DNA from: Moorella humiferrea
GTDB taxonomy: Bacteria > Bacillota > DSM-521 > Neomoorellales > Neomoorellaceae
Length of the DNA: 64,000 nucleotides
Direction of reading: 5' to 3'
Assembly: GCF_039233145.1 (NCBI RefSeq)
Contig: NZ_CP136419.1
Location: 2,392,001-2,456,000 of the forward strand
Below, piece by piece: positions 27,030 through 53,459 of the stretch; positions within the stretch are counted from its first letter, which is position 1, and each line of letters begins with the position of its first letter. The notes beneath the pieces were generated by a model. It worked only from the letters and a program-made list of their open reading frames with translations. It had not been told where the DNA came from and ran no database searches. The position numbers and the translations under genes were made by a program.

Positions 27030-27110
27030 TTTAACGTATAACCTCCTCCGAATGATTATGCCGTAAATTGTATCTGCTACTTGGGGATATGTCCCTCCGC
27101 CGCTCAAGAG

Positions 27111-28349
27111 TTACGCGCCTGCCAGCCAGACTTCCATTAATTGATGCATCACGGCTGCCGCGCTGGAAGAAAAGACCGGGTCGTTGATATTGGCGTCCAG
27201 TTTCATTATCTTCACCCTGGGTTCCAGGTTGGCCTCCAGGGCCGCAACCAGGGCGGCGTCGGCCGCCGGGTCGTGGAGGGGCCCGCCGGCGCGGCCGTTT
27301 TCCGACCAGCCCTTGAGGGGTACCATGACGGCCACCGGTCCCCGGGCCGCGTTCAACCTGGCGGCCAGCTCTTCGCCCACCCGGGTCAACTCTTCTTTGG
27401 TAGCCCGGACGTTAGTGTTGTAGGGGTTATGGTAGTGGGTCGGCCGTCCCCGGTAGGCCGGAGGGATGCTCTCCGCCGGGCCAAAACAGAAGTAATCCAG
27501 CCCCCCAAGGGAGATCACCATGGGAATGCCCTTTTCACCTGCCGCCTTCAGGCGCGGCCGCATGGGCGTATAGATGTCGCCCGCTTCAGGGAAAACCTCG
27601 GCCAGCAGTTCATGGGTAGTTAAATCTAATACTCCTTGGATCAACCCGGCTTCGATCAACTCTTCCATGGCCGAACCGCACGCGCCAGACGCATGGAAGG
27701 CAATGACTTCGTAGCCCAAATCCACCAGATTTTCCCGGGCGGCGACGACCGCCGCATTGGTATTGCCGAAGGCGGTAGTGGCAATAACCGTCTGTTTACC
27801 GGGCCTTAAGGGTTCTCCGTGGGACGCCATGCCCATGACCGCTCCCGCGGCGTTGCTCAAAATGGTCCGGCTGACAGTGTTGGGGCCGCCCAGCAGATCG
27901 GCCACCGAGAACATCATGATGATGTCCTTGTACTCGATATAGGGACGGATGTTGCCGGATGCGACCGTCGAGACGATCACCTTGGGCAGCCCGATGGGCA
28001 GGGCTCGCATGGCGATGGCCGCAATGGCCGTGCCCTGGTTGCCGCCGATGCCCAGAACGCCCGCCAGTTCGCCCTGCTTGTAAAGATCGAGCAGCACCCG
28101 CGCCGCTCCCATTCCCATGGTCTGCATCATGGCATCGCGGCGCAATGAGGGAAGTTCCTTATATTCCACTCCGCCCAATCGGCAAATCTCTTCCCTGGGG
28201 TAGGTGGCTTTAAAGCTGTGAGGAAGATAGGTGCTGACGTCCAGCACCGGCGCCTCCCATCCCCGGGAAGCGATGAATTCCTGTAAAAATCGGGTTTCTG
28301 CTTCTTTTGTATCGACGGTAGCAACTATGGCAATTGCCTTGTGCGGCAC
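27111..28349 (-). CDS. Tm-1-like ATP-binding domain protein (UPF0261)
   Basis: This 412-residue protein of the UPF0261/Tm-1-like family has VATVDTKEAETRFLQEFI at the N-terminus, GIGGNQGTAIAA, VSTVASGNIRPYIEYKDI and VIAFHASGACGSAMEELI. Family structures show an N-terminal nucleotide-binding part and a C-terminal TIM-barrel-like part. No enzymatic activity is established to my knowledge. GTG start with GGAGGAGAA. Its conserved place between dehydrogenase and isomerase genes suggests a catabolic step. Confidence 0.85.
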   Translation of the reverse strand: MPHKAIAIVATVDTKEAETRFLQEFIASRGWEAPVLDVSTYLPHSFKATYPREEICRLGGVEYKELPSLRRDAMMQTMGMGAARVLLDLYKQGELAGVLGIGGNQGTAIAAIAMRALPIGLPKVIVSTVASGNIRPYIEYKDIIMMFSVADLLGGPNTVSRTILSNAAGAVMGMASHGEPLRPGKQTVIATTAFGNTNAAVVAARENLVDLGYEVIAFHASGACGSAMEELIEAGLIQGVLDLTTHELLAEVFPEAGDIYTPMRPRLKAAGEKGIPMVISLGGLDYFCFGPAESIPPAYRGRPTHYHNPYNTNVRATKEELTRVGEELAARLNAARGPVAVMVPLKGWSENGRAGGPLHDPAADAALVAALEANLEPRVKIMKLDANINDPVFSSSAAAVMHQLMEVWLAGA

Positions 28350-53206: not shown

Positions 53207-53459
53207 GCCGGATATATCCCGAAGCTGCGAATAGTGAAGCGCCGGTAACAGAACAGGCGAGGTGAGGTTACCGTTGCTGCCGCTTAAGGCACGCCTGAAT
53301 ATGCCTATGAGAGGTAATAGACGAAACTCATAGAAGGATATAAGTTTGTGGAATCAGAAGCCTGATCATGGGCAATCCGCAGGCGGCATGGCAACGGTCC
53401 GAACCGAGCCGTCGTTCTGTCGGCGCGTAACTTCTGAGCAGCGGAGGGATATATCCGGC
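53207..53459 (+). ncRNA. Candidate stand-alone structured RNA/mobile element between argG and argH (HEARO/OMEGA-RNA-like?)
   Basis: The 311-bp gap 53175-53485 holds no convincing ORF. A 253-bp element is bounded by perfect 14-bp inverted repeats (GCCGGATATATCCC at 53207-53220, its complement at 53446-53459), extending imperfectly to about 38 bp. Inside, three perfect stems are visible: 53243-53249 with 53267-53273, 53254-53259 with 53292-53297 (crossing the first, so a pseudoknot), and 53305-53311 with 53327-53333. Segments such as GGCAACGGTCCGAACCG and GGCGCGTAAC look like an RNA of the HEARO (IscB/IsrB-associated) class as I remember it. That match is from memory and unverified. No IscB/IsrB/TnpB gene is present. 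Strand is a guess. Confidence 0.45.

What the first reader, a model, noticed from the sequence alone, without database searches (positions are those of the whole stretch)
53207..53459. Inverted-repeat-bounded, pseudoknotted non-coding element inside the arginine operon
The gap between argG and argH is 311 bp, against less than 100 bp elsewhere in the operon. Seen: perfect 14-bp inverted ends (about 38 bp imperfect) and three internal perfect stems, two of which cross to form a pseudoknot. No ORF. Established: HEARO RNAs (the omega-RNAs of IscB/IsrB) often occur without their protein gene, and a well-studied IsrB comes from a related thermophilic Firmicute. Inference: a solo, guide-carrying omega-RNA or a MITE derived from one, placed in antisense to arg transcription. 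The similarity is recalled, not computed. A new RNA class is the alternative.
Basis: partly seen in the sequence, partly recalled or inferred. Interest (0 to 1): 0.72.

Follow-up and report, generated by a model that had tools for sequence, protein, structure and literature searches.

The report
Mobile hairpin element between arginine genes
The odd stretch between two arginine genes is one of dozens of scattered, protein-free copies of a tightly folded mobile element; it belongs to a widespread but unexplained family of structured sequences, and comparing related bacteria shows that copies come, go, swap and sit in opposite directions at the same spots.

Summary
The structure is real (fold z about -10). 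The omega-RNA (HEARO) reading is rejected: no Rfam match to E<=10, no IscB/IsrB protein in this genome, and at two IscB loci of relatives that Rfam HEARO does recognise our model finds nothing. The window (genus Moorella) holds one of 4 full copies in its genome and about 40 full copies in the genus. A model from these copies finds relatives in other Firmicute families, including loci that Rfam calls TwoAYGGAY (function unknown). A wider model links the Moorella element, a second Moorella repeat and TwoAYGGAY into one superfamily with strong covariation (31 of 36 pairs). The pseudoknot is not supported. Copies sit between co-directional genes (35/37). At argG-argH, Moorella genomes carry the element in one direction (here), the other direction (G009), another repeat type, its remnant, or nothing; similar swaps occur at 7 of 8 sites. 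In two other genera superfamily members carry IS1182-type ends and lie inside duplicated terminator hairpins, as a published IS1182-family model predicts. Best reading: a non-autonomous, stem-loop-associated mobile element with a conserved fold. Mobilisation of the Moorella copies by an IS1182-type transposase is inference. New variant of a known kind.

The parts
53207..53459 (+). whole element (type A copy); the strand with the conserved motifs is +, antisense to argG/argH
53207..53220 (.). left terminal arm (P1), GCCGGATATATCCC
   Evidence: 96% of P1 cells paired, 10 of 14 pairs with changes on both sides
53446..53459 (.). right terminal arm (P1), GGGATATATCCGGC
53224..53228 (+). helix P2, 5' side (partner 53438-53442)
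   Evidence: 96.3% paired, 2 pairs changed on both sides
53239..53254 (+). helices P3 and P4, 5' sides (partners 53421-53426 and 53414-53420)
53256..53267 (+). GGCGAGGTGAGG: helix with two tandem G-A mismatches, 5' side
   Evidence: 98.4% of pairs kept; motif also in distant relatives
53399..53410 (+). CCGAACCGAGCC: partner side of the tandem G-A helix
53270..53277 (+). helix P6, 5' side (partner 53391-53398)
   Evidence: 97.6% paired; one pair switches U-A to C-G in 15 of 32 copies
53278..53390 (+). inner domain; variable between families, replaced or interrupted in relatives
53354..53360 (+). 5' side of the claimed pseudoknot (partner 53431-53437); not supported
27085..27119 (-). remnant of the 3' end of another copy inside the window (89% to query 228-262)
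   Evidence: G000:C1:2419085-2419119

Best explanation
It is a dispersed, protein-free mobile element of about 250 bp whose one strand folds into a long rod with tandem G-A mismatches. SHOWN: multi-copy; genus-wide patchy presence; conserved fold with covariation; superfamily relation to Rfam TwoAYGGAY; location between co-directional genes; opposite orientations, alternative element types, remnants and empty states at the same intergenic sites. SHOWN for two relatives' genera (G266/G391 and G137): superfamily members carry ends like those of an IS1182-family insertion sequence (found in G391) and lie inside duplicated intrinsic-terminator hairpins. INFERRED for the window copy: it spreads and is swapped by a transposase acting in trans on stem-loops (stem-loop replacement as proposed for IS1272), its folded form being what the machinery recognises and exchanges; the in-place flip at argG-argH came from such an exchange or from recombination between the 14-bp arms. 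INFERRED: at argG-argH it is mainly a tolerated spacer, with at most a modest effect on the operon mRNA through its stable hairpin.
For: Copies: 4 full plus fragments in own genome, 10 of 11 genus genomes, relatives in 11 of 214 sampled genera with R1 and 28 of 267 with R2. Covariation: genus 18 pairs with changes on both sides, 0/500 shuffles; without terminal arms and pseudoknot 5 pairs (4/500), covariation score 0/500; superfamily 31 of 36 pairs, 87.8% vs 70.8% paired, 0/500. Orientation at argG-argH: flanks collinear (87-88%), element 89.4% identical only when inverted (61.3% otherwise). Site table: A, B and C types alternate at 7 of 8 sites. B inside A in own genome. Scar TGGGGATATGTCCCCA in place of the element in two genomes while a third keeps a partial copy. 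Near-identical copies in other genera with IS1182-type ends and duplicated terminator hairpins; an IS1182-family transposon with the same 5' end and target habit; stem-loop replacing/duplicating model for IS1272 (PMC5678879).
Against: Moorella copies show neither IS1182-like ends nor target duplications, and whether this genome has an IS1182 transposase was not tested. The IS1182 link rests on two other genera. The structure is conserved more strictly than a passive MITE interior needs, which suggests a function of the fold itself. Nothing is known about transcription.
Confidence: 0.6

Rival explanations
1. A functional structured RNA of the TwoAYGGAY superfamily (for example a protein-binding sRNA or a cis-acting mRNA element) that is dispersed like a repeat but kept for its RNA function.
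For: Strong covariation of inner helices, strand-specific tandem G-A mismatches, 35 of 37 Moorella copies between co-directional genes and 27:8 sense bias. CsrA binding has been proposed for TwoAYGGAY (PMC4333381).
Against: Orientation is not conserved: opposite at orthologous sites and 12 sense to 17 antisense outside the genus. Patchy presence and swapping with other repeats. The AYGGAY hairpins that suggested CsrA binding are not recognisable in the Moorella family. No dedicated promoter evident.
Confidence: 0.22
2. An ERIC/REP-like intergenic repeat whose role is in processing or stabilising polycistronic mRNA.
For: Same kind of place: intergenic, co-directional genes; very stable hairpin on either strand. 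ERIC is the reviewed precedent (PMC2229807).
Against: Many orthologous sites are empty without obvious consequence; orientation-free.
Confidence: 0.12
3. Flips and losses arise only from hairpin slippage or recombination between the near-palindromic arms; no transposase is involved in recent change.
For: Arms in the window are both direct and inverted repeats (GGATATATCC twice); scars consist of one arm; at argG-argH the element diverged about as much as its flanks.
Against: Does not explain swaps to unrelated repeat types, elements far more diverged than flanks (S7: element 82.7%, flanks 92-98%), nested insertion, or the 98-99% identical dispersed copies in other genera.
Confidence: 0.15
4. 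Solo HEARO/omega-RNA of an IscB/IsrB system.
For: Large structured RNA in a thermophilic Firmicute; near-absence of the protein is compatible with solo copies.
Against:: no model match while the positive control works; different consensus and fold.
Confidence: 0.01

Closest known systems
TwoAYGGAY RNA (Rfam RF01731)
   Same: Our models hit several TwoAYGGAY loci at the same place and strand (R1; R2: about half of the 23 RF01731 loci searched); both have tandem G-A mismatches in a long stem (reported for TwoAYGGAY in PMC4333381); both multi-copy in Firmicutes.
   Different: No RF01731 match in this window or in seven genus genomes; the two AYGGAY hairpins are absent; the element is longer, with a different inner domain and closed terminal arms.
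IS1182-family insertion sequences and their miniature (MITE) derivatives; IS1272 stem-loop-replacing transposition (PMC5678879)
   Same: Superfamily members in G266 share the 5' end TCAGTTTGTTGACAAAG with an IS1182-family element of G391 and, like it, sit in duplicated terminator hairpins; G137 members have ends of the same type. Moorella sites behave as if stem-loops replace one another.
   Different: Moorella copies lack such ends and duplications.
ERIC/IRU, REP/BIME, Correia and YPAL repeats
   Same: Protein-free palindromic repeats between genes, both orientations, stable folded transcripts (PMC2229807).
   Different: Larger, with a deeply conserved RNA-like core shared across Firmicute families and unrelated in sequence as far as known.
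HEARO (RF02033), omega-RNA of IscB/IsrB
   Same: Large structured non-coding RNA.
   Different: No covariance-model match, no protein gene, different fold.

Membership tests
HEARO / omega-RNA | match to the RF02033 covariance model | tested here: not met
   no match to E<=10; positive control at IscB loci works
HEARO / omega-RNA | IscB/IsrB gene in cis or in the genome | tested here: not met
   PF14239 absent from own genome, present in 1 of 11 genus genomes
TwoAYGGAY | match to RF01731 at gathering score | tested here: not met
   no match
TwoAYGGAY | homology to accepted members | tested here: met
   R1 hits L090, L097, L183, L185, L188 at RF01731 positions, same strand; R2 hits about half of the 23 RF01731 loci searched
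TwoAYGGAY | two hairpins with AYGGAY loops | tested here: not met
   no such loops in the aligned copies, by inspection
TwoAYGGAY | tandem G-A mismatches in the main stem | tested here: met
   GGC-GA-GGT-GA-GG / CC-GA-ACC-GA-GCC in nearly all copies
MITE (miniature inverted-repeat element) | short, protein-free, multi-copy, terminal inverted repeats | tested here: met
MITE (miniature inverted-repeat element) | ends shared with an autonomous transposon | tested here: inconclusive
   no IS1182-like ends near the Moorella copies; met for relatives in G266; other transposon families were not tested
MITE (miniature inverted-repeat element) | target-site duplication | tested here: not met
   none in Moorella; stem-loop duplications of about 18-26 bp in relatives
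Structured RNA | covarying base pairs beyond chance | tested here: met
Structured RNA | transcription as a discrete RNA | not testable with these tools
   no expression data

The most novel reading that the evidence does not exclude
The conserved fold is an active part of transposition: a structured RNA or single-strand module, carried inside elements with different ends in different lineages, that directs insertion into and replacement of stem-loops by IS1182-type transposases. TwoAYGGAY would then be the first known member of a transposon-borne class of that kind.
Probability: 0.12. Interest if true: 0.85.

Novelty: new variant of a known kind. Interest (0 to 1): 0.52.

Why it matters
TwoAYGGAY was described in 2010 and still has no known function. 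Placing it, together with a set of uncatalogued Moorella repeats, in one superfamily that in some genera is the body of IS1182-type miniature elements targeting terminator hairpins turns an orphan RNA into a testable mobile-element question. The site histories (empty, A, B, C, flipped, scar) are a natural record of stem-loop exchange, a transposition mode proposed from few cases.

Tried and rejected
HEARO/omega-RNA: rejected with a positive control. Pseudoknot: pairing no better than shuffled partners. Whole Rfam: no match on the element. Phage or plasmid origin: no similar DNA in either collection. IS200/IS605-type Y1 transposase as mobiliser: absent from own genome and from most carriers. 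IS110 element next to copies L039/L044 in G009: judged from the translated sequence to be an ordinary insertion beside them. Target duplications or IS1182 ends at Moorella copies: none. Literature on Moorella intergenic repeats or on IS1182 miniature elements with structured RNA: nothing relevant found (one search did give PMC5678879). A naive longest-ORF reading of gene direction was unreliable within the genus and was replaced there by a coding-potential model. Type C repeats are not hit by the models, so their membership is left open.

Full report
OBSERVATION. The argG-argH gap contains a 253-bp stretch with perfect 14-bp inverted ends that folds end to end far more stably than shuffled sequence on either strand, with no substantial internal ORF. 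The claimed pseudoknot is not supported by comparison of copies.

COPIES. The genome (2.67 Mb, one contig) holds three more full copies plus fragments. Among 61 genomes, DNA similarity finds it only in the genus, in 10 of 11 members. Alignment of 32 copies shows blocks conserved on one strand (for example GTCCGAACCGAGCCGT) and terminal arms whose sequence varies while pairing is kept. Counting pairs gives 90% paired cells and 18 pairs with changes on both sides, 0 of 500 shuffles as high. Leaving out the terminal arms, the apical hairpin and the pseudoknot still gives more covariation than every shuffle, though only 5 pairs with double changes (4 of 500 shuffles reach this).

WHAT IT IS NOT. 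No Rfam family reaches E 10. HEARO finds nothing in the genome; the IscB/IsrB domain is absent from it. As a control, HEARO matches above cut-off at two of the IscB loci of relatives, while our model has no convincing match at any of 14 such loci (best 11.5 bits). The omega-RNA reading is therefore rejected.

FAMILY. A covariance model of the copies (R1) finds full-length relatives in other Firmicute families (best 6e-32). Some of these are loci that Rfam calls TwoAYGGAY (RF01731), same place and same strand. A second model (R2) built from the two outer halves of diverse relatives hits a second Moorella repeat (type B) and about half of the TwoAYGGAY loci searched, and finds matches in 28 of 267 sampled genera. 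On its alignment 31 of 36 pairs have changes on both sides, 87.8% of cells pair against 70.8% in shuffles and 31-44% in slid controls; the structure was derived from that alignment, which favours it. The shared signature is a rod with tandem G-A mismatches, a feature also reported for TwoAYGGAY (PMC4333381). The AYGGAY hairpins are absent and RF01731 does not match, so the Moorella element is a relative, not a member, of TwoAYGGAY as defined.

WHERE IT SITS. With a coding-potential model, 35 of 37 Moorella copies lie between co-directional genes, 27 sense and 8 antisense; the window copy is antisense. Outside the genus, using longest ORFs, 29 of 34 callable loci lie between co-directional genes, 12 sense and 17 antisense.

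HOW SITES CHANGE. At argG-argH, genus-mate G009 has the element in the opposite direction: flanks are collinear at 87-88% and the element matches at 89.4% only when inverted. Other genomes have type B there (G002, G007), a B remnant (G001) or nothing (sequences). At 7 of 8 sites types A, B and C alternate between genomes. Opposite orientations of type A occur at five sites; at argG-argH and the sigE-sigG site (gene names here are my reading of the sequence) the copies are each other's closest relatives or nearly so, so a flip of a resident copy is likely, whereas at the others independent insertion or replacement is possible. In the own genome a type B element lies inside a type A copy. At one site two genomes have only TGGGGATATGTCCCCA, a single near-palindromic arm, where G009 has the full element and G001 a truncated copy sharing its diagnostic loop variant, so the element was lost there. 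In distant genome G118 three repeats have one arrangement of core and flank and a fourth has the core inverted.

MECHANISM LEAD. In G266, G137 and G271, 88-99% identical copies are dispersed. In G266 and G137 they have ends of the type TCAGACTGTAGACAAA...TTTGTCTACAGTCTGA and are flanked on both sides by the same intrinsic-terminator hairpin, a duplication of about 18-26 bp; G271 copies look similar. Copies in G137 and G271 match TwoAYGGAY above its cut-off, copies in G137 also R2. In G391 (same genus as G266) a 1,564-bp insertion sequence with the same 5' end and a related 3' end, flanked by the same kind of duplicated hairpin, encodes an IS1182-family transposase (interrupted frames; NF033551 E 4e-58 and 3e-56, each half below the cut-off set for the full-length protein). 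IS1272 of this family was reported to insert at stem-loops and replace them, and the authors' model also predicts stem-loop duplication (PMC5678879). Thus TwoAYGGAY-type sequences are, in these genera, very likely the bodies of IS1182-type miniature elements. For the Moorella element the same mechanism is an inference: its copies lack such ends and target duplications, but stem-loop replacement would explain both type swaps and opposite orientations at fixed sites.

JUDGEMENT. The window element is a non-autonomous, stem-loop-type mobile repeat with a deeply conserved fold. Whether the fold works as RNA, as single-stranded DNA during transposition, or both, is open. An mRNA-level effect on argG/argH is possible and untested.

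Noticed in passing
window 27085-27119: A remnant of the 3' end of another copy of the element lies in the same window.
   Followed up: no
L151 472-679; L111, L112, L169, L269: A second dispersed Moorella repeat (type B, about 207 nt, GCTGGCATTTGT...ACAATGCCAGC) related to the same superfamily by model R2.
   Followed up: partly
L120, L141, L116, L049: A third dispersed Moorella repeat (type C, GGGTACAGGCGGAGGGCGACTTGG...), about 240 nt, same intergenic sites, not hit by the models.
   Followed up: no
L029, L039, L045, L047, L050 and others, right flank: Many sense copies sit beside a short conserved hairpin CCAGAAGGnACCATTTCTGGCAGAACCCTATTTTCGGAGGAG that seems to supply the ribosome-binding site of the next gene.
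   Followed up: no
L039 and L044, downstream: An IS110-like transposase gene (judged from its translation) at 99% identity next to two different copies in G009, starting in a GGAGCCCCCCATGGGGGCT palindrome.
   Followed up: no
L167, L168, L133, L134, L239: Another inverted repeat, CCCAGCACTCA...TGAGTGCTGGG, is inserted inside type B elements and inside a relative in another genus.
   Followed up: no
L087 flanks (G265): Relatives in this genus are bounded by different inverted ends (GTAAATATTCAGT / ACTGAATATTTAC), so the same core occurs with different transposon-like ends.
   Followed up: no
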